From positions 1-33,528 of the forward strand of contig JAITPM010000013.1 of NCBI GenBank assembly GCA_031289425.1: a stretch of 33,528 nt of DNA, written 5' to 3'. Below are positions 1,045 to 33,528 of the stretch, one piece after another. This stretch comes from Fusobacteriaceae bacterium (lineage in GTDB: Bacteria; Fusobacteriota; Fusobacteriia; Fusobacteriales; Fusobacteriaceae). The notes beneath the pieces are model-generated. The model saw only the letters and a program-made list of their open reading frames with translations, had not been told where the DNA came from and did not search any database. Both the position numbers and the translations under genes were made by a program. The stretch's first letter is position 1; every line of letters begins with the position of its first letter.

Positions 1045-3078
1045 ATGAAAACAGATTTATTAAAAGAATTGGATAAATTGCATGAAGAAGATAAACATCA
1101 GGAAATAATTGATGAGATAGAAAAATTGGAAATCGAAGATCAAAATGATTATAGGATTGTAGGAAAATTAGCGAGAGCCTTAAATAATTTGGGTAAATAT
1201 CAAGAGGCTTTGGAAAAATTAATCGAAATAGAACCCTATAAAGATCAGGATAAATTCTGGTATTATAGAGTTGGGTATTCTTATAGTGGAATGGAAGATT
1301 ATGATAAAGCGATTGAATATTTTGAAAAATCAAGAACATTAGCACCTGATGACGTGTGGACTCTTTTTGAATTAGGTTGGAATTATGGTAAGGTTGGTAA
1401 AAATAAAGAAGCGATAGAAGTCTTGGAATTAGCTTATGATTTGGATGAAAATAAAGATGCAAGCATACTTCGTGAAATTTGTAATAATTGGGAAAAATTG
1501 GGAGAATATCAAAAAGTAATAGATGGACTTTTACAGGTATTGGAAAAAATAGAAGAAACTAGCAGTATTTGCAGTCAAATGGCATTTAATTATATCAAAA
1601 TGAAGCTGATGAACGAAGCTGAAGAAAAACTTATAAGAGCTATAGAACTGGGAAGAAATGATTCGTGGGTCTATGGTCAGTTGGGATGGATTTTAGGAAC
1701 TAAAAATAGAGAAGAAGAGGCTATCAATTGGTTAAAAAAAGCTATTGATTCTGAGAAAAGAACCGGAAAAGATGTAGATGCATGGCTTTATGGACAATTA
1801 GCTTGGAATTTAGGTAATTTGAAAAAATATGAAGAATCTTTGGAAGAATTTAAAAAAATAGAAAAAATGAATCAGGGAGACGCCTGGGTCTATGGGCAAA
1901 TAGGATGGACATTGGGGCAACTTGGAAAATATGAGGAGGAACTTGAATATTTAAATAGAGCATTGGCAGAAGAAAAAAATGATAATTGGTTATATTCTGA
2001 ACTTGGGGAAACATACAATCATTTGGATAGATTGGATGAAGCCATAGAGAATTTTTTGAAATCCAAAGAACTTGGAAGAGACGATATATGGTTAAATAGT
2101 AGATTAGGATATATTTATAGCAAAAAAAACGAAAGGAAAATAGCTCTGGAATATTTATATAATGCTAAAGAAAAAGGAAGAGAAGATATTTGGTTATACT
2201 CAGAAATTGCGTGGAATCTGGGTATGATTGGAGAGTACGAAGAAGAAATGAAATATCTTTTAAAAGTATCGGATATGGGAAGAGAGGATCTCTGGATAAA
2301 TAGAGAAATCGGATGGGTGTATTTGCAATTAAAAGATTTTGATAAATCTATAGAATCATTCAAAAACGCAGAAAAAATGGAAGAACCTGATGATTGGTTA
2401 TGTACTCAATTGGGGCGGGCTTACAACTTAAAGGGAGAATATGAGCAAGCATTGGAGTATTCATATAGAGCTAAGGAAAAAGTAGGTAATAGTGACCCCT
2501 ATCTCTTATCGCAAATAGGTCAAATATTGGGAAATTTGGAAAGGTATAAAGAAGCACTGGAATATTTAAATCAAGCAGAAAAAGCAGGAAGAGACGATAT
2601 ATGGATATATTCGGAAATCGGATGGAATCTTGGAGGACTTGGAGACCATGGACAGGCGATAGAATATTTCAAAAAAGTAGAGGAAATGGGAAGAAAAGAT
2701 TCTTGGCTTTACTCACAATTTGCATGGAGTTATGATAAGATAAGCGACTATAAAAAGGCCATAGAATGTTATTTGAAAGCTAGGAAATTAGACCCGAAAG
2801 ATAAGTGGATCGAATACAATTTGGCAATTACTTATGAAAAATCTGGAAATTATGATGATGCTATAACATCCTATGAAGATGTCATAGAAGCTGGAGAATA
2901 TAAAGGATGGACACATTTGCAACTTGCTAAAATATATGCAGAAGTTGGAGAAAAAAATAAAGCTAGAGAATATTTGGATAAAGTCAAAAATTATTTGGAC
3001 GTGACATCTACTGATGTAAAAGAAAAAATAGAAAAAGTAGAGATATTACTCCAAAATACACAGACATATTTATCTTAG
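1045..3078 (+). CDS. Giant tetratricopeptide-repeat protein
   Basis: A protein of ~677 aa made almost entirely of about 17-18 tandem ~34-37-residue TPR units. Most carry the consensus D-x-W-x-Y-x-Q-L-G-W-x-L-G, then Y-E-E-A-I-E-Y. The invariant Trp in helix A (e.g. D-A-W-L-Y-G-Q-L-A-W-N-L-G) is stricter than in typical TPRs. There is no signal peptide, membrane segment or catalytic motif, so it is predicted to be a cytoplasmic scaffold or protein-binding solenoid. Start: TTG 1042 is immediately followed by ATG 1045; the SD GGAG (1033-1036) sits 8 bases from the ATG, so 1045 is preferred. It ends 78 bases before the DUF2339 gene, which is followed by two DUF3999-like genes, suggesting a functional link. 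The partner is unknown. Confidence 0.88.
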   Translation: MKTDLLKELDKLHEEDKHQEIIDEIEKLEIEDQNDYRIVGKLARALNNLGKYQEALEKLIEIEPYKDQDKFWYYRVGYSYSGMEDYDKAIEYFEKSRTLAPDDVWTLFELGWNYGKVGKNKEAIEVLELAYDLDENKDASILREICNNWEKLGEYQKVIDGLLQVLEKIEETSSICSQMAFNYIKMKLMNEAEEKLIRAIELGRNDSWVYGQLGWILGTKNREEEAINWLKKAIDSEKRTGKDVDAWLYGQLAWNLGNLKKYEESLEEFKKIEKMNQGDAWVYGQIGWTLGQLGKYEEELEYLNRALAEEKNDNWLYSELGETYNHLDRLDEAIENFLKSKELGRDDIWLNSRLGYIYSKKNERKIALEYLYNAKEKGREDIWLYSEIAWNLGMIGEYEEEMKYLLKVSDMGREDLWINREIGWVYLQLKDFDKSIESFKNAEKMEEPDDWLCTQLGRAYNLKGEYEQALEYSYRAKEKVGNSDPYLLSQIGQILGNLERYKEALEYLNQAEKAGRDDIWIYSEIGWNLGGLGDHGQAIEYFKKVEEMGRKDSWLYSQFAWSYDKISDYKKAIECYLKARKLDPKDKWIEYNLAITYEKSGNYDDAITSYEDVIEAGEYKGWTHLQLAKIYAEVGEKNKAREYLDKVKNYLDVTSTDVKEKIEKVEILLQNTQTYLS

Positions 3079-3082
3079 TCGA

Positions 3083-3108
3083 ATTTTACTTTTTGTAAAA
3101 TAATTTTT
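3083..3108 (+). terminator. Weak hairpin between TPR and DUF2339 genes
   Basis: ATTTTAC (3083-3089) and GTAAAAT (3095-3101) form a 7-bp stem with a T5 loop, followed by AATTTTT. It is AT-rich and weak. It may act as a partial terminator or 3' mRNA stabiliser after the TPR gene rather than a full stop, since the next gene has no clear promoter of its own. Confidence 0.3.
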
Positions 3109-3156
3109 AATTATTTAAATGTCTGTAGGGTATGTGATTCTGATTTAGGAGGGCAA

Positions 3157-5886
3157 ATGTCTCAGGATAATAGTGATATACTAAATAAAAAACATGAATT
3201 GTCAGCTTTAGAAGAAAAACAGAATCAACTAAAAGAAATAACTAATGATGTGTCTTTAATTATAAATAAATTAAAAAAAGATATTGATATTTCCAAAGAA
3301 GATGAACTTTTTAGAAAAAAAGAAGAATTAGAAAAAAAAGTTGAATCTCAAAAAAATGAATTAGGTGAAAAAAATAAATTAATAAAAGATTTAAAAGATA
3401 CCAATATGGCTTTAATATATGAGTTGAAAGCAGAAAAGGCCAAAAATATAGAAAACATCACTTTTTCATTCGAAAAAACATTTAAAAACAAAATATCCGA
3501 AGATTTCAAGAAAGAATTTAAAGAAAAATTACAGGCATATCAATACAAAATTCTAGTGAAAATTAATAATTTGAAAAAAATTCTGCCCAAATCCAATGCT
3601 GCTAAAGCCGGTGATATAAAAAATAAATTGGCAGATATTGAAAATGAGGTAAATATTTTAGTAAAGGATGAGGAAGCAAAAATTTTCGATTCTCAAAGTA
3701 TTATAGAAAAGGATCTTTTGGAATTTGCTACTGATACGGCTAAAGAATTTTCAGAAAAGGCTAAAAATAGTAATTTGATGGAAAAAGAAAAGAAAAATTT
3801 TATAATGGAGAGAATAGTTGGGCAAAAGGGATTTCAAATATTAGGATTAATTTCTATATTTGTAGCACTAATTATATTATTCAAAGATCAATTCCATAGA
3901 CTATTTAATGGTCGATATGGGAAAAGTATAGTTGCATATTTATTGGGAATGATATTTTTGTTATTGGGAGAATACCTCTATAAAAAAGAGAAAAAAACAT
4001 TTGCAACCGGAATGATTGGTGGAGGAATAGGGGTTCTGTATTTGGCAACAATACTTTCTTCGACATATTTAAAATTATATTCTTTAAAAACTGGTCTTGG
4101 ATTAGCGATTATCCTGACCGTTTTATCAATAGTCTTATCATTGAAGTATAATTCTCAAATGATAGGAATAATGGCTCTTATAGGTGGATATATTCCGTAT
4201 AGTACATGTATTGGGTTACAAGAAAATATAGGAATATTATATTTGTCTGCATACTCTTTGATATTTCAATTGGCAGTCTTAGCTGTATCTTGGAGCAAAA
4301 ATTGGAAAGCATTAAGAATTACAGGATTTATAATAGGTGCGATTAATACTATATTTATGATGAATTATATGTATAAATCCAATATAAATATTTATATTAT
4401 TTTGATTTTTGTAGTAATGTTTACGACTATGTATACATATGTATTTCTGATTGGAGCAGAACATGAAAATAGAAAAGAAAAAAAGACAGATTATCTATTT
4501 TTAGGAATAAATCTTATATTAAAATTTGTAAGCGTAACTGTTTTAACAATAATTTTAAAAACTTCAATATACGAAAAAGCCGGTATTTTTCTGGTTATTG
4601 GGTTTTTATATGCTGTACTTGGGGATCGACTTAAGAAATATGCTCTTTCACAAACGTTTAATTTTATGGGACTTGCAGCTTTTACAATAGTTGTTCCAAT
4701 TCTTGCACCGAATGGCTATATTCCAATAGCTTGGGGATTGGAGGCATTGCTTATATATACACTTTCTGTCAAGACTAAAAATGAAAACTTAACTGCCGGA
4801 ACATTGATTTTATATTTTATAACTATAATCGAAAATATACCGGTTATAATGGCTCACCATTACATGAAGTTTGATTATAGACCATGGATAATAAGACATA
4901 AATTATTGAGATTGGAAACATTTGATGTAAATGAAATTGTTTATTATGCAGATCAAATTGTAGTTATTTTGCTGTCTTTTGCTGTTTATAATTATATAAT
5001 AAAAAATAAACCAAAAAAACTAAAGGGAGCTTTTGAACTAATTTTAAAATATGCAACATTGACTTTCTCAATTTATACGTTCAGAAATTTATCATTCAGA
5101 GTTTTGGAAAAAATATTTGTAAATTCTATCAGGTTTAAATATTTCCACTATATGTTATTTGCAACTTTGGTAACATTTGCTGTGATATTTGTTCTAAGGA
5201 AATGTACGTATAAATTTAAAAAATATTATGATAAATTATCTATATTATATATTGTAATAATAGAGGGAATTACTCATTTATACTTATACTTATCGCTTCC
5301 GATTCTTGGTCATTTGAATTATAGTGAAGACCCAATAAGGTATGGCTATTCGGGTATATCGAATCCGTCATTTAATTATAAATTGATTATAATCGAAATA
5401 ATTTTTACTGTTATATTAGTAGGATATTTGATATTTATTTGCAGATTGGATTTACACAAGGCGATATTTAAAGATTCACCTAGAAATATGGGGTGGATAA
5501 TTGGAGAAGTAATCTATATTATTACTATTGCTATTTGGATATTGGATATCTATAAAATCCCAAGAAGAGCTCTCATATTTGATACACTTGGGCTTGTGAT
5601 ATGTATTGTTTTCGTTTGGAAAGGATTTAAATTACCCAATAAAAATATGAGGAGAATTGGATTGGCAATAGGGCTATTATTTACAGCAAAGGGTGTCATA
5701 ATTGATTTCGCAAGACTTCAATCCTATAGAGTTGTAGGATATTTTATAACAGGATTTTTACTTCTTGTTACTTCTGCAATCTATCAGAATGCCCTTAAAA
5801 AATTGGATGTTACTGAGAGAAATGTTAATAATTTGGATAGTTCAAATGATGAAATAGAAGAAAATTTGGAAGAAAAAGAAAAATGA
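3157..5886 (+). CDS. DUF2339 polytopic membrane protein with coiled-coil N-terminus
   Basis: A 909-aa protein. Residues ~10-100 are a heptad-like E/K/L coiled coil and 100-220 are also charged and helical. From ~226 to ~890 there are about 20 or more hydrophobic segments. The transition V-G-Q-K-G-F-Q-I-L-G (221-230), then Y-G-K-S-I-V-A-Y-L-L-G and a glycine-rich G-M-I-G-G-G-I-G-V-L-Y-L-A (285-297), is the typical DUF2339 pattern. No catalytic function is established for this family; many members sit next to DUF3999 genes, as here. It has a short charged C-terminal tail. The SD AGGAGG (3147-3152) is close to ATG 3157. I infer an inner-membrane component whose cytoplasmic coiled coil could bind the upstream TPR protein; that contact is conjecture. 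Confidence 0.85.
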   Translation: MSQDNSDILNKKHELSALEEKQNQLKEITNDVSLIINKLKKDIDISKEDELFRKKEELEKKVESQKNELGEKNKLIKDLKDTNMALIYELKAEKAKNIENITFSFEKTFKNKISEDFKKEFKEKLQAYQYKILVKINNLKKILPKSNAAKAGDIKNKLADIENEVNILVKDEEAKIFDSQSIIEKDLLEFATDTAKEFSEKAKNSNLMEKEKKNFIMERIVGQKGFQILGLISIFVALIILFKDQFHRLFNGRYGKSIVAYLLGMIFLLLGEYLYKKEKKTFATGMIGGGIGVLYLATILSSTYLKLYSLKTGLGLAIILTVLSIVLSLKYNSQMIGIMALIGGYIPYSTCIGLQENIGILYLSAYSLIFQLAVLAVSWSKNWKALRITGFIIGAINTIFMMNYMYKSNINIYIILIFVVMFTTMYTYVFLIGAEHENRKEKKTDYLFLGINLILKFVSVTVLTIILKTSIYEKAGIFLVIGFLYAVLGDRLKKYALSQTFNFMGLAAFTIVVPILAPNGYIPIAWGLEALLIYTLSVKTKNENLTAGTLILYFITIIENIPVIMAHHYMKFDYRPWIIRHKLLRLETFDVNEIVYYADQIVVILLSFAVYNYIIKNKPKKLKGAFELILKYATLTFSIYTFRNLSFRVLEKIFVNSIRFKYFHYMLFATLVTFAVIFVLRKCTYKFKKYYDKLSILYIVIIEGITHLYLYLSLPILGHLNYSEDPIRYGYSGISNPSFNYKLIIIEIIFTVILVGYLIFICRLDLHKAIFKDSPRNMGWIIGEVIYIITIAIWILDIYKIPRRALIFDTLGLVICIVFVWKGFKLPNKNMRRIGLAIGLLFTAKGVIIDFARLQSYRVVGYFITGFLLLVTSAIYQNALKKLDVTERNVNNLDSSNDEIEENLEEKEK

Positions 5887-5901
5887 TGTGGGAGATTAAC
5901 T

Positions 5902-7182
5902 ATGAAAATAAATAATAAGAAAAAAATATCAAAAATTATTATATTATTATTTATGATTATAATTATAAAATCTATAACTTTTTCTGACCAATTTTATAAT
6001 AAAATAAATATAACCGGAGAAAACAAATATAAAGAATTTTATCTTACAGAAGAAATCTATAAAAATTCTGCCAATAGTCTGGAAGATATTAGAATCATAA
6101 ATTCTAAAAACGAGGCCGTTCCTTATGTTTTAGAAATTTCCAAAGGAAATACAAATACGTATATTAAAGAAAGTTATTTCTCATCAGATATAAAAACAAT
6201 AGAAAAATCAGATGTTAAAGAAATAATAATAAAATTTGAACCTAATGATAAAAATATAGACATACTAGCAAACAAACTAGAAATAAAATCAAACAAAAAT
6301 TTTTATATTGAATATCAATTATATGGAAGTAATAATGGGACAAAATGGGATTTTATAGCGAAGGGAGATATGTATTCGACTCCAAGGGACAGTAAACTAA
6401 GTTTAAAATTCAGAGAAGATTATTATGAATACTATAAATTTCAAATCCCTACTACAGAAGAAGTATCTATAACAGGAGCTATATTATCCAATGAAATCGA
6501 ATTAACAGAAAATATAAAACCAATAGTTGCAAATTTAGAATTTGAAGATATTACAAAAGAAATTATTGAAAAAAAAGAAAATAATCATGAGACTTATATA
6601 CAGATAAAAATTAATAAGGTTCCGATTAAGTCAATATCATTGGTTATACAGGATGATTATTTTGACAGAAATTATTTTGTCGTTGATAAATCTATTGACT
6701 ATATTGAAAAAAGGGTGTACGATTATATTTCAGTCGGAAAAATATTTAGGACTTCAATCCGGGAAAATTTAATAATAAATTTGAATTTCATAATTTCTGA
6801 TGAGATTTTACTGATAATATCTAATACTGACAATAGACCGATTAAAATAACAGAAATAAACGGTAATTATTTACTGGACAAAATAATATTCCTGTGCGAA
6901 GACTTAAAGGATACTTATAAAATCACATATGGAGATGAAAGCAGATTTAAACAAAATTACGATATAGAAAAATACTACAAAGAAATAAAAGAAAAAGATA
7001 TGGTAACTCTGGATAAATCAGAAAAAAATGCCATAGCTAGTGAATTAAGAAAAGATGAGGAAGGTAAAAAAGATAAGAATAAAGAAGGAAAAGAGAATAT
7101 ATTTTACAAGTTGTTTTTAGGGTTGATTTCTGTTATTTTGATTATTTATGTTGCAAAATCATTAAAAAAATCAAAAAAATAA
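5902..7182 (+). CDS. DUF3999-like secreted, C-terminally anchored protein (copy 1)
   Basis: A 426-aa protein with a hydrophobic N-terminal signal (residues ~9-28), an extracytoplasmic body, and a C-terminal membrane segment (~401-418) with a K-rich stop-transfer tail. Early residues follow the DUF3999 pattern: I-T-G-E-N-K then F-Y-L-T-E-E-I-Y (~46-53), D-I-R-I-I-N (62-67) and A-V-P-Y-V-L-E (72-78). Residues ~137-182 (Q-L-Y-G-S-N-N-G-T-K-W, then Y-Y-E-Y-Y-K-F-Q-I-P) resemble a discoidin/F5-8C beta-sandwich core, suggesting carbohydrate or ligand binding; this is inference. It starts 15 bases after the DUF2339 stop with SD GGGAG, so translation is probably coupled. The family has no assigned biochemical function. 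Confidence 0.72.
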   Translation: MKINNKKKISKIIILLFMIIIIKSITFSDQFYNKINITGENKYKEFYLTEEIYKNSANSLEDIRIINSKNEAVPYVLEISKGNTNTYIKESYFSSDIKTIEKSDVKEIIIKFEPNDKNIDILANKLEIKSNKNFYIEYQLYGSNNGTKWDFIAKGDMYSTPRDSKLSLKFREDYYEYYKFQIPTTEEVSITGAILSNEIELTENIKPIVANLEFEDITKEIIEKKENNHETYIQIKINKVPIKSISLVIQDDYFDRNYFVVDKSIDYIEKRVYDYISVGKIFRTSIRENLIINLNFIISDEILLIISNTDNRPIKITEINGNYLLDKIIFLCEDLKDTYKITYGDESRFKQNYDIEKYYKEIKEKDMVTLDKSEKNAIASELRKDEEGKKDKNKEGKENIFYKLFLGLISVILIIYVAKSLKKSKK

Positions 7183-7254
7183 AAGATTCGTTTTTTATGA
7201 ATACAATAATAGTATCATATATAATATGAGTAATTTTTTAATAGAGTGATGTAT

Positions 7255-8751
7255 ATGAAAAAAATAGTTATGAATTTTATAGTTTTTATTTTATGCACAT
7301 GTAAATTATTTGCATTTAATTATTATAGTGATATAATAATTACTGGAGAGAATAAAAATAAATTTTTTTACATAACGGAAGATATATATTCTAAAAGTAA
7401 AAGAAACCTGAAAGATGTTGCGTTATTTGATGAAAAAGAAAAAGAAATACCCTTTGTGATAGATAAATATCAAGAGAACTATATTAAAGAGGTCACACAA
7501 AGGTATGATGGGAGATTTTTAAAGGATAAAAAATATGAATCTGGAACGAAAAGAGAAATAACAATAAAAATAAATGAAAATCATTCAGGATTATCTATAT
7601 TGGGAAATTTATTGAATATTCGTGTAACAACGGCAGCTCCCATGCGTAATCCTTTTAAAGCAGAAGAAATAAAGTTATTTGGAAGTAACGACAATAAAAA
7701 TTGGGAAGAAATAAAAATAAATAAACATTTGGTAGATGGAGGGGTTGGTGATCATAATTTAAAATTTTATTTTGAAGAGTCGGTATATTCGTATTTTAGA
7801 TTAGAAATTCCTGCAATTGCTAAGATGTCAATGAAATCAGTGAGTTTCTTTTTGGAAGAAGACAGCATCCAAAATTATATAGAAAATTATTCTCATCTGT
7901 ATGTAAGAGATATTACCAGCGGAATATATGATATCAATGGAGATGAGACACTTCTTCAAGTGCGAACTAATAATTTACCATTGGATTTTATAAGATTGTA
8001 CAGTGGAAATTTGGTAAATAGTAGATACTATGTGTATAGTGGAAAGGAGAATATATATAAATTAGAAACCCCAATTTACAGTGGAAAAATTGTAAAGTTG
8101 AATAATATAGAAGATTTAATAATAAAATTGGACAGAAATGAAAAACATAAAATAATTTATATAAAAATAGTGAATCAAAATGTAAATTTAAAAAGGTTAA
8201 ACATAACAGCAGCTCATGGTAAATATTCACCGGATAAAATTGTTTTCCAAAAAAATAGCAGAGGGAGTAACTATCAGGTATTCTATGGTAATGCAAAATG
8301 GGAAACGCAAAATAACAATCAGGAAAATCAAAACAAATTACAAGATTATAATTTTCAAAATTGTGATATGGTGTCTTTAAATAAACCGAAAGAAAGTATA
8401 AATTTAATAGTAAAAACCAACGATTTTATACCGCTAAAAAACACAGGGAAATGGTATAATGATGTGGTAATAATAATTATAATCAGTTCAATTATTGTCT
8501 TTTCAGGAATACTCATAAGATTGCTTAGAAGACATAGATCAAAAGACGAAAATGAATATGGGAATGATGAAGATGAAGACGACTGTTATATAGCAGATAA
8601 AAAAATAGCGAAAGAAAAAAATATAGTGAAAAATAAAAAAATAGCAATTACAGATAAACGATTAAATCAAGATTTACACGGAAATTCTGTGGATATTCAA
8701 TATAAAAGTAAAAATATTAATCTTGAAAAAATAAAAAATTGTCAGTATTAA
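7255..8751 (+). CDS. DUF3999-like secreted, C-terminally anchored protein (copy 2)
   Basis: A ~498-aa paralogue of the preceding protein with the same order: signal peptide (1-20), I-I-I-T-G-E-N-K (27-34), F-F-Y-I-T-E-D-I-Y (37-45), E-I-P-F-V-I-D (64-70). Its discoidin-like motif is K-L-F-G-S-N-D-N-K-N-W (140-150), then Y-S-Y-F-R-L-E-I-P (178-186). A membrane segment lies at ~402-421. Unlike copy 1 it has a ~72-residue cytoplasmic tail with an acidic cluster (E-D-E-D-D) followed by a K-rich stretch. Starts: GTG 7246, ATG 7249 and ATG 7255 are all in frame; 7255 gives the standard M-K-K signal start and a plausible GAG at 7244-7246. No strong SD is visible. The gap to copy 1 is only ~70 bases, consistent with one operon. 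Confidence 0.7.
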   Translation: MKKIVMNFIVFILCTCKLFAFNYYSDIIITGENKNKFFYITEDIYSKSKRNLKDVALFDEKEKEIPFVIDKYQENYIKEVTQRYDGRFLKDKKYESGTKREITIKINENHSGLSILGNLLNIRVTTAAPMRNPFKAEEIKLFGSNDNKNWEEIKINKHLVDGGVGDHNLKFYFEESVYSYFRLEIPAIAKMSMKSVSFFLEEDSIQNYIENYSHLYVRDITSGIYDINGDETLLQVRTNNLPLDFIRLYSGNLVNSRYYVYSGKENIYKLETPIYSGKIVKLNNIEDLIIKLDRNEKHKIIYIKIVNQNVNLKRLNITAAHGKYSPDKIVFQKNSRGSNYQVFYGNAKWETQNNNQENQNKLQDYNFQNCDMVSLNKPKESINLIVKTNDFIPLKNTGKWYNDVVIIIIISSIIVFSGILIRLLRRHRSKDENEYGNDEDEDDCYIADKKIAKEKNIVKNKKIAITDKRLNQDLHGNSVDIQYKSKNINLEKIKNCQY

Positions 8752-30592: not shown

Positions 30593-30596
30593 GTGA
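30528..30596 (+). CDS. Possible 22-codon leader peptide coupled to the autotransporter
   Basis: The ORF begins M-I-K-N-L-K-L-I and ends R-E-M, stopping at TGA 30594-30596 in the ATGTGA that also contains the autotransporter start GTG 30593-30595. Such 4-base overlaps often mean translational coupling. Weak point: the AGGAGGT (30504-30510) is 17 bases from its ATG, longer than usual, so initiation is uncertain. It may equally be chance in an AT-rich leader. Confidence 0.25.
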   Translation: MIKNLKLINIHCGIMQNVGREM

Positions 30597-33528
30597 AAAC
30601 AAATATTAAAGATTTAGTAGAAACGTCCTTAAAAACATTTTTAAAAAAGAAAAAAATTGGATTTACTACGGGGCTATTAGTTGCATTTTTAATAACGGGA
30701 GAAATAGGCTTTGCGACAAATGGGCAAACAGAAGAGTTGGAAAGTAAGTCAAATAACATTCAACAAGAATTGTTTGATAAAATATTTTATCAGAGATTAG
30801 AAGTTGAAGAATTACTCAAAGCCAACGAAGAGAAATTAAAGGAACTTACAATTGGATACATGGATTTGATAAAAGAAGGAGATTGGTATAGTAAATCACG
30901 GAGTCCTAGTTATTTTTATTCTATTATTGGTGATTATAAATCAGTAGATAGAGTAAATAAAAAATGGGTGGGGAGTACGAGATCAAACACAGTCATGGAT
31001 ATGCAAAGAGAAGCATTTAATAGGGCTCTTGGTGGAGGATCTATTGCCAAATCTGCCAAATATTTACCTTTTGATGCTGGAAGATATACTAATGACAGAT
31101 ATGGTGGAAATTTATCAAGTGGTTGGGTAAATAGTCAACCAGATTATAATACAAATACGGTCATATATGATTATGAAGATAGCCTCATAATATTGCCGAT
31201 AGTGAAAGCACCGGAAGTACTAGAGCCCACAGCTCCGGCAGTAACTTTTGTTGCGCCCACTGCACCTACTGTGGTTCCGGTGACATCACCTCAGATAGCT
31301 AATATTCTTGTGGGAACTATAAGCTTGACAACACCTAATATCAATCCACTTACAGTAAACATACCAGCCTCTTTTACACAACCGGCGGCAGTAAATGTAA
31401 CCGTAAATGAACCTAATATAAATGTTACGATTAATGATATAAATGTGGCAGGCCCGGGAGCACTGGTTATACCTACTCTTACGAGCCCATCTATCAGTAT
31501 AACCTTGTCACCTAATGTACCACCTAGCGTGCAAGATCCAAATCCGGTAGTTTCGACACCAGTGGCTCCACCAGAGCCTAATTTTACTGCGTTTACTAGA
31601 GGAAGAGGAGACTGGTTGGGCGGATTTAAATTTATACAAGGAAGAAATAATTGGGATAGAACTATCATGGCATGGGAACAAGGCTCGCCTGAACCGGTAC
31701 TTAGAGCTATCAATAGCCAACCGATGTTTAATATAAATGGAACACCAACTATATATGGGCTTGGAAAATCTTCAACGAGCAAAATAGTAGCTACAACTTT
31801 TGGTAGCACAGTTACAAATAGTTATACTGATATAGCATCTAATGTTACAGTAGGTGGTGGAGCCCCCAACAATCAATATGGAGCGCATCCATTGACTGAG
31901 ACAAGTCCAGGAGTAATTCCGGGGATGACTGCGGGTGCTTATTACAGTGCGATTGATAATCAAGCACTTCCTACAGTATTACCTGCCGGGATATCAGGTT
32001 CATCCAATCCAAACAGTACGAGATACCAACAATCTTGGATTTTTGAAGGAACACCAACAGTTCAAGATATGGCGATTAAAGTAGGTGGTGATTCTCCATC
32101 AGCGTCTACAGCCATTTTTGCACAGATATCACGTATTGTTATGAATAATGTAGCAATAGAGCTTGCAGGAAGAACTGTAATTGGACAACTTTCTACTAGA
32201 GATGCTTATACCGTAAATTTTAATAATGTAGATATAAACATAACAGGAAATTCAAACAGTATACTGACATCCTATCTTACACCGAATCAACATGTGTACT
32301 ATCAATCTACAGATGGAAGAACTAGCACAATATGGGGAAGAAGTTTTTTGGACAATGTAGCAAGCACTTCATATGTGAACTTAGGTGGAACTAATTTAGT
32401 CGCTAGCACTAGTGAAAATACTATTTTCTATTTTGCTCCTGCGAGTCAACATAGATGGACTGGTACTTCTCAAATGGTTCCGCTACCGAATACTTCTACT
32501 CCGCTTGTATATGACCTAAATTCTGAAAAATATTATATATATTCACCACTTATGGGAAATATGAGAATAGAAAACAATGGTGGAAGCATTGCATATACAG
32601 GAAGTGGAAATGTAGGAATATGGGTAGCAGCTTATATTCCTGATAGATCAAAATGGATGGCAGCCGGAACATTTGTATCACCTTCGCTTAATTTAGGAGA
32701 TGTTTCTTTGCAAGGAGATCAGAATGTAGGATATTATTTTGCCGGAAATAACAGCAGAGCAGATGCCAACGGGATATTTCAAGGCAATGTTTATGTAAAT
32801 GCCAAATTGGGAACCATGCTAGATAATAGTAGTGGCACCATACAAATAGGAACAGGAAATAAAGGCGGAAATGATGCTGGAAAAAGTGAAGACAATGTAG
32901 CTATCTATGTGGCATCCGGTCAAAGAACTGGCTTGAATAATAATTTAAGTGGATTTTTACAATATTTTCCTGCTACACTTGGATTTCTAGTAAACACAAC
33001 GCTTCACCCAAATCTTGTTGGATTGGCAAATGGATCAGAAATAGGATTTCCATATTTGACCGCTGATCCAATAAAAGATATGAATATAAGTAATTTTGCA
33101 ATAGAATTTGGTAAATATTCCAAAAGAGGAATAGGATTAATATCTAAAAATGGAAGTGCAGTGAATGTAGATGTTACAGGAACAGAAATTAATGATAACG
33201 CTGGAACTGCTGCCGATAGAGCTGTTGAAAGTATAATGTTTTATGCCGAAGGAATTTGGCATAATCCGAGAAGGGCTCTTACCGGAGGTGTATATAATCA
33301 AGAAGCTTATGGTAGAGGTGAAAGTACAACAGGACAAAAAAATATATCAGATTTTAATTCAACTATAAATGTAGTTGATAATATAACAATGAGCAGCCTC
33401 AATGCGATTGCTTTATTTGCTAAAAATGGCGGTAAAATAACAGGTCAAAATATTACTATGAACGGCTATAGTTCCAAAGGAGTATTTGCCTATGGGGTAG
33501 GCAATCATTCCAATTTAGTTGATTCAAA
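30593..33528 (+). CDS. Fusobacterial autotransporter (type V secreted adhesin-like), 3'-truncated by window
   Basis: The open frame runs unbroken from GTG 30593 to the window end (~978 codons), so the C-terminal beta-barrel is not visible. The extended N-terminus (M-K-T-N-I-K-D-L-V-E-T, then L-K-K-K-K-I-G-F, hydrophobic core L-L-V-A-F-L-I-T-G, cleavage near G-F-A at ~40) matches the fusobacterial autotransporter-associated N-terminal domain. Residues ~45-85 are helical, and ~205-340 is rich in P, V, A and T (e.g. P-T-A-P-A-V-T-F-V-A-P). After that comes a G/N/S/T-rich passenger with short beta-strand-like repeats, typical of a beta-helix adhesin. Glycine-aromatic segments (G-N-V-G-I-W-V-A-A) fit. 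Function is probably surface adhesion. SD GGGAGGG (30582-30588) is 4 bases before GTG. Confidence 0.85.
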   Translation, partial: MKTNIKDLVETSLKTFLKKKKIGFTTGLLVAFLITGEIGFATNGQTEELESKSNNIQQELFDKIFYQRLEVEELLKANEEKLKELTIGYMDLIKEGDWYSKSRSPSYFYSIIGDYKSVDRVNKKWVGSTRSNTVMDMQREAFNRALGGGSIAKSAKYLPFDAGRYTNDRYGGNLSSGWVNSQPDYNTNTVIYDYEDSLIILPIVKAPEVLEPTAPAVTFVAPTAPTVVPVTSPQIANILVGTISLTTPNINPLTVNIPASFTQPAAVNVTVNEPNINVTINDINVAGPGALVIPTLTSPSISITLSPNVPPSVQDPNPVVSTPVAPPEPNFTAFTRGRGDWLGGFKFIQGRNNWDRTIMAWEQGSPEPVLRAINSQPMFNINGTPTIYGLGKSSTSKIVATTFGSTVTNSYTDIASNVTVGGGAPNNQYGAHPLTETSPGVIPGMTAGAYYSAIDNQALPTVLPAGISGSSNPNSTRYQQSWIFEGTPTVQDMAIKVGGDSPSASTAIFAQISRIVMNNVAIELAGRTVIGQLSTRDAYTVNFNNVDINITGNSNSILTSYLTPNQHVYYQSTDGRTSTIWGRSFLDNVASTSYVNLGGTNLVASTSENTIFYFAPASQHRWTGTSQMVPLPNTSTPLVYDLNSEKYYIYSPLMGNMRIENNGGSIAYTGSGNVGIWVAAYIPDRSKWMAAGTFVSPSLNLGDVSLQGDQNVGYYFAGNNSRADANGIFQGNVYVNAKLGTMLDNSSGTIQIGTGNKGGNDAGKSEDNVAIYVASGQRTGLNNNLSGFLQYFPATLGFLVNTTLHPNLVGLANGSEIGFPYLTADPIKDMNISNFAIEFGKYSKRGIGLISKNGSAVNVDVTGTEINDNAGTAADRAVESIMFYAEGIWHNPRRALTGGVYNQEAYGRGESTTGQKNISDFNSTINVVDNITMSSLNAIALFAKNGGKITGQNITMNGYSSKGVFAYGVGNHSNLVDS

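What the first reader, a model, noticed from the sequence alone, without database searches (positions are those of the whole stretch)
1045..8751. Candidate undescribed envelope system: giant TPR scaffold + DUF2339 membrane protein + two DUF3999 proteins
Four adjacent co-directional genes combine a cytoplasmic 17-18-repeat TPR solenoid, a polytopic DUF2339 protein with an N-terminal cytoplasmic coiled coil, and two secreted, C-terminally anchored DUF3999-like proteins with discoidin-like motifs. DUF2339-DUF3999 adjacency is known elsewhere but has no assigned function. The TPR partner and the DUF3999 duplication here suggest a trans-envelope complex running from a cytoplasmic scaffold through the membrane to an external ligand-binding surface.
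Basis: partly seen in the sequence, partly recalled or inferred. Interest (0 to 1): 0.7.

Follow-up and report, generated by a model that had tools for sequence, protein, structure and literature searches.

The report
Arc3-type membrane-defence locus with TPR
This gene group is a version of Arc3, a known pair of bacterial membrane proteins that protects cells against lipid-cutting toxins, to which one small branch of Fusobacteriaceae has added a repeat-rich cytoplasmic protein and a modified second copy of one partner.

Summary
Four adjacent same-strand genes encode an ~18-repeat TPR protein without signal peptide, a ~19-TM DUF2339 protein with an N-terminal coiled coil, and two paralogous secreted, C-terminally anchored DUF3999-type proteins with a discoidin-like domain. 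The reading "undescribed, no assigned function" is wrong: DUF2339-DUF3999 is Arc3A-Arc3B of Pseudomonas aeruginosa, which co-precipitate; Arc3A protects against phospholipase toxins by preventing lysophospholipid accumulation (PMC8926400, PMC12663445).

The TPR gene is not part of the conserved Arc3 unit. No TPR homologue lies within about 8 kb of DUF2339 in any of 20 relatives' loci, which carry at most one DUF3999 gene. In the two held genomes of the same genus, however, DUF2339 and the first DUF3999 gene are absent, yet TPR (68-72% identical) and the second DUF3999 gene persist at the same site, with a second, exported TPR protein between them. All three copies of that second DUF3999 protein carry a 45-79-residue cytoplasmic tail; other copies examined have 3-12 residues. 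So this is an ancestral Arc3 locus plus a genus-specific TPR/tailed-DUF3999 module. That TPR binds the tail is inference. A modest new variant of a known system.

The parts
1045..3078 (+). Cytoplasmic TPR protein, 677 aa, ~18 repeats; ATG at 1045
   Evidence: orthologues 68% and 72% identical over full length in G051 and G052
3157..5886 (+). DUF2339 polytopic membrane protein (Arc3A family), 909 aa
   Evidence: PF10101 118 bits, cut-off 33.6; 34-36% identity to relatives
3157..3816 (+). N-terminal charged, coiled-coil-like segment of the DUF2339 protein, residues 1-220
   Evidence: sequence composition; equivalent segment in the Leptotrichia and Fusobacteriaceae orthologues
3826..5787 (+). Transmembrane region of the DUF2339 protein, ~19 hydrophobic segments, residues 224-877
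   Evidence: hydropathy
5902..7182 (+). First DUF3999-type protein (Arc3B family): signal peptide, beta-rich ectodomain, C-terminal TM, 8-residue basic tail
7246..8751 (+). Second, duplicated DUF3999-type protein: signal peptide, discoidin-like ectodomain, TM, long polar cytoplasmic tail; start GTG 7246 or nearby ATG
7651..7815 (+). Discoidin / F5-8 type C-like stretch of the second DUF3999 protein, residues 136-190
   Evidence: PF00754 at E 0.028, supported by the family profile against PDB and Foldseek
8518..8748 (+). 77-residue charged cytoplasmic tail of the second DUF3999 protein
   Evidence: tails of 45 and 79 aa in G051 and G052 orthologues, 3-12 aa in the other nine DUF3999-type proteins examined

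Best explanation
The locus is two layers. The DUF2339 gene and the first DUF3999 gene form an Arc3 pair. Shown elsewhere: Arc3A and Arc3B associate, and Arc3A stops lysophospholipids from accumulating when a phospholipase toxin attacks the membrane. Inferred here: the fusobacterial pair does the same, with the DUF3999 protein held in the inner membrane by its C-terminal helix and its discoidin-like ectodomain in the periplasm touching lipid or glycan. The second DUF3999 gene is a duplicate of the first that arose in this genus and gained a long cytoplasmic tail. The TPR gene is a genus-specific neighbour that stays with this duplicate even after the Arc3 pair is lost. The most likely role (inference) is a cytoplasmic TPR solenoid that binds the tail and so couples the periplasmic ectodomain to cytoplasmic partners, as a sensor or an anchor.
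For: PF10101 well over its cut-off. DUF3999 orthologues in 10 relatives over the PF13163 cut-off. In Leptotrichia and Fusobacteriaceae loci DUF2339 is directly followed by a DUF3999 gene, the arrangement defining arc3 in PMC8926400. Same site upstream of the DEAD-helicase, mltG and tilS genes in another Fusobacteriaceae genus (g5), so the pair looks ancestral. The three second-copy proteins form a 100/100 clade joined to the window's first copy at 91/95. G051 and G052 have no DUF2339 anywhere and a single DUF3999 gene, the second copy; order MTase-TPR-TPR2-DUF3999-DEAD with short gaps of 12-58 nt between TPR, TPR2 and DUF3999. Long tails only in the second copies.
Against: Arc3 function has been tested only in Proteobacteria. 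Fusobacterial DUF3999 proteins lack the N-terminal lipidation predicted for Arc3B. The tails are not conserved in sequence, and the window's own tail is charged but not net acidic. TPR is far more conserved (68-72%) than the second DUF3999 gene (26-32%), so TPR may have a job of its own. The linkage rests on only three genomes. In the DUF2339 tree the window protein sits on a long, unplaced branch.
Confidence: 0.6

Rival explanations
1. Arc3 pair plus bystanders: the TPR gene is an ordinary member of the large TPR families of Fusobacteriaceae that happens to sit upstream, and the second DUF3999 copy is a drifting duplicate.
For: TPR homologues at unrelated places in many Fusobacteriaceae genomes; no TPR near DUF2339 in 20 relatives' loci; TPR and the second DUF3999 gene evolve at very different rates.
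Against: TPR and the second DUF3999 gene stay together in 3 of 3 genomes of the genus despite loss of the genes between them and despite 30% versus ~53% GC; all three second copies keep a long tail.
Confidence: 0.28
2. A four-protein trans-envelope complex as first proposed: TPR scaffold, DUF2339 channel, two DUF3999 ectodomains working as one machine.
For: Four co-directional genes within 7.7 kb; Arc3A-Arc3B association shown in P. aeruginosa (PMC8926400).
Against: Only one of three genomes of the genus, and none of the other relatives surveyed, has the four-gene set.
Confidence: 0.1

Closest known systems
Arc3 (arc3A/arc3B; PA5114-PA5113 of Pseudomonas aeruginosa)
   Same: Polytopic DUF2339 protein encoded directly next to a secreted, C-terminally anchored DUF3999 protein.
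   Different: No N-terminal lipidation signal on the DUF3999 proteins; a second, tailed DUF3999 copy; an upstream TPR gene; function untested here.
Arc3-type loci of Leptotrichia and of other Fusobacteriaceae
   Same: DUF2339 followed by an orthologous DUF3999 gene; in one other Fusobacteriaceae genus (g5) also the same place upstream of the DEAD-helicase, mltG and tilS genes.
   Different: LemA and DUF2207 genes follow in Leptotrichia, a CreD gene precedes in genus g5; no TPR gene; no second DUF3999 gene.
Discoidin / F5-8 type C / CBM32 domains
   Same: Weak profile and fold resemblance of the DUF3999 ectodomain.
   Different: No known ligand; the ectodomain is larger and multi-domain; models are of low confidence.

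Membership tests
Arc3A | PF10101 (DUF2339) match | tested here: met
   118.1 bits against 33.6
Arc3A | Many transmembrane segments | tested here: met
   about 19 by hydropathy
Arc3B | PF13163 (DUF3999) match, encoded next to Arc3A | tested here: met
   Adjacent by 15 nt; the window's own score is below cut-off (21.4 against 30) but orthologues pass. For the second copy membership rests on paralogy.
Arc3B | Predicted N-terminal lipidation (reported for P. aeruginosa, not used to define the family) | tested here: not met
   no lipobox in any of 10 fusobacterial DUF3999 proteins
Arc3 | Protection against phospholipase toxins / no lysophospholipid accumulation | not testable with these tools
   needs mutants and lipidomics
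Arc3 | Arc3A-Arc3B physical association | not testable with these tools
   shown only in P. aeruginosa (PMC8926400)
Conserved TPR-DUF2339-DUF3999 system | TPR gene conserved next to DUF2339 | tested here: not met
   no TPR homologue in 20 relatives' loci; DUF2339 absent in G051 and G052
Conserved TPR-second DUF3999 module | TPR and second DUF3999 gene at the same site across the genus | tested here: met
   3 of 3 genomes

The most novel reading that the evidence does not exclude
An Arc3B-type protein was freed from Arc3A in one Fusobacteriaceae genus and rebuilt into a new trans-envelope sensor or anchor: periplasmic discoidin-like ectodomain, single membrane helix, cytoplasmic tail bound by a giant TPR solenoid, with an exported TPR protein taking the place of the Arc3 pair in sister species.
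Probability: 0.3. Interest if true: 0.5.

Novelty: new variant of a known kind. Interest (0 to 1): 0.33.

Why it matters
Arc3 protects against one of the commonest classes of bacterial toxin, but its mechanism is unknown and Arc3B has no clear role. A lineage in which an Arc3B-type protein persists without Arc3A, next to a TPR protein and with a new cytoplasmic tail, gives a natural way to ask what Arc3B does by itself.

Tried and rejected
Rejected: "undescribed system" (PMC8926400 describes the pair). Rejected: the window contig as contamination (30% GC here and in other contigs of the genome). Structure models of the two DUF3999 proteins were of low confidence (mean pLDDT 69 and 62), so Foldseek hits count only as support for the profile hits. 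Some sibling genes (TPR in G051; the DEAD and mltG genes in G052) were hidden in one ORF table by longer antisense ORFs and were recovered by tblastn.

Full report
What is there. The four genes are real and in the stated places. 1045-3078 encodes a 677-residue protein made of about 18 TPR motifs at a 34-residue spacing and without signal peptide. 3157-5886 encodes a DUF2339 protein (PF10101, 118 bits against a cut-off of 33.6) with about 19 hydrophobic segments after a charged, coiled-coil-like N-terminus that its orthologues share. 5902-7182 and 7246-8751 encode paralogous proteins (29% identity over 356 residues, E 8e-29) with signal peptide, beta-rich ectodomain and one C-terminal membrane helix. 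The first matches PF13163 (DUF3999) below the cut-off (21.4 against 30 bits), but its orthologues in ten related genomes pass it. The discoidin-like domain is supported: a profile of the family finds CBM32 and F5/8 type C structures, best 7nsn at E 1.7e-5, and Foldseek on low-confidence models finds the same class.

What is known. DUF2339 and DUF3999 are Arc3A and Arc3B. In Pseudomonas aeruginosa arc3A (PA5114) was a leading factor for survival against the phospholipase toxin Tle3; the two proteins co-precipitate; loss of Arc3A lets lysophospholipids accumulate; and Arc3A homologues from other species complement, while Arc3B contributes little (PMC8926400). A second group confirmed arc3A as a resistance factor against lipase effectors (PMC12663445). 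The mechanism is not known.

Neighbourhood survey. Among 98 genomes of the phylum, 22 have a DUF2339 match at E 0.001 or better, 19 over the cut-off. Twenty relatives' loci were read over 12-19 kb. In Leptotrichia (named through L093 and L094) and in Fusobacteriaceae, DUF2339 is directly followed by one orthologue of the window's first DUF3999 gene. In Leptotrichia a LemA gene and DUF2207 genes follow; in Fusobacteriaceae genus g5 a CreD gene precedes and the DEAD-helicase, mltG and tilS genes follow, as in the window. Three of the weakest DUF2339 matches (L044, L045, L046) showed no DUF3999 gene in the stretch read; L044 is cut by its contig end. No TPR homologue lies in any of these 20 stretches, and no genome but the window's has two DUF3999 genes (two matches listed for G028 and G068 are pieces of one broken gene).

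The sibling genomes. The two held genomes of the same genus, G051 and G052, have no DUF2339 anywhere and a single DUF3999 gene, orthologous to the window's second copy. At the same site between the methyltransferase gene and the DEAD-helicase, mltG and tilS genes they have TPR (68% and 72% identical over the full length), a second TPR gene and the DUF3999 gene, with gaps of 12-58 nt. The second TPR protein starts with a signal peptide and resembles the C-terminal half of the cytoplasmic one, so it looks like an exported tandem duplicate. In the window the DUF2339 gene and the first DUF3999 gene occupy its place.

History. In a tree of DUF3999 proteins the second copies of the three species form a clade at 100/100, joined to the window's first copy at 91/95. 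This fits a duplication in the genus lineage followed by fast divergence and, in the siblings, loss of DUF2339 and of the first copy. The three second copies have 45-79 residues after the membrane helix; the other nine proteins examined, from Fusobacteriota and one Bacteroidales, have 3-12. The tails are not conserved in sequence; those of G051 and G052 are acidic, that of the window is rich in both acids and bases.

Mechanism. Shown here: gene content, homology, linkage, duplication, tail. Shown elsewhere: Arc3 pair formation and Arc3A function. Inferred: (i) the window's DUF2339-DUF3999 pair acts as Arc3; (ii) TPR binds the tail of the second DUF3999 protein and couples its periplasmic ectodomain to the cytoplasm. 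Against (ii): TPR is much more conserved than the second DUF3999 gene (68-72% against 26-32%), and only three genomes support the linkage. The fusobacterial proteins also lack the lipobox expected from Arc3B, so they should stay in the inner membrane.

Verdict. Observation confirmed; interpretation partly supported. A known system with a genus-specific elaboration: new variant of a known kind, of modest interest.

Noticed in passing
G051 (L079:10491-11606 -) and G052 (L080:5453-6625 +): An exported TPR protein with signal peptide, apparently a tandem duplicate of the cytoplasmic TPR protein, sits where the window genome has DUF2339 and the first DUF3999 gene.
   Followed up: partly
L079, L080, L111-L116 against window and L107-L110: Genomes labelled as one genus differ greatly in GC content: about 30% in the window's genome, about 50-57% in G051 and G052, while the DEAD-helicase gene is still 78-79% identical.
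   Followed up: partly
L027-L037, L043 (mostly Leptotrichia): DUF2339-DUF3999 is followed in Leptotrichia by a small protein identified as LemA in L028 and then a membrane protein identified as DUF2207 in L028; genes of similar length follow in the other Leptotrichia loci.
   Followed up: partly
L038, L039, L041, L042: In Fusobacteriaceae genus g5 a ~470-aa membrane protein, CreD in L038 (PF06123, 440 bits), precedes DUF2339.
   Followed up: partly
L096:9205-16927: A Bacteroidales MAG carries a DUF3999-like gene between an MscS-like channel gene and a bacterial alpha-2-macroglobulin gene.
   Followed up: partly
L041 (G028), L035 (G068), L043 (G070): Arc3 genes are broken or split in several genomes: DUF2339 split in G028 and G070, DUF3999 disrupted in G028 and G068.
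   Followed up: no
window 30593-33526: A long open frame of at least 978 aa runs off the window end and matches no Pfam family at E 1e-5.
   Followed up: no
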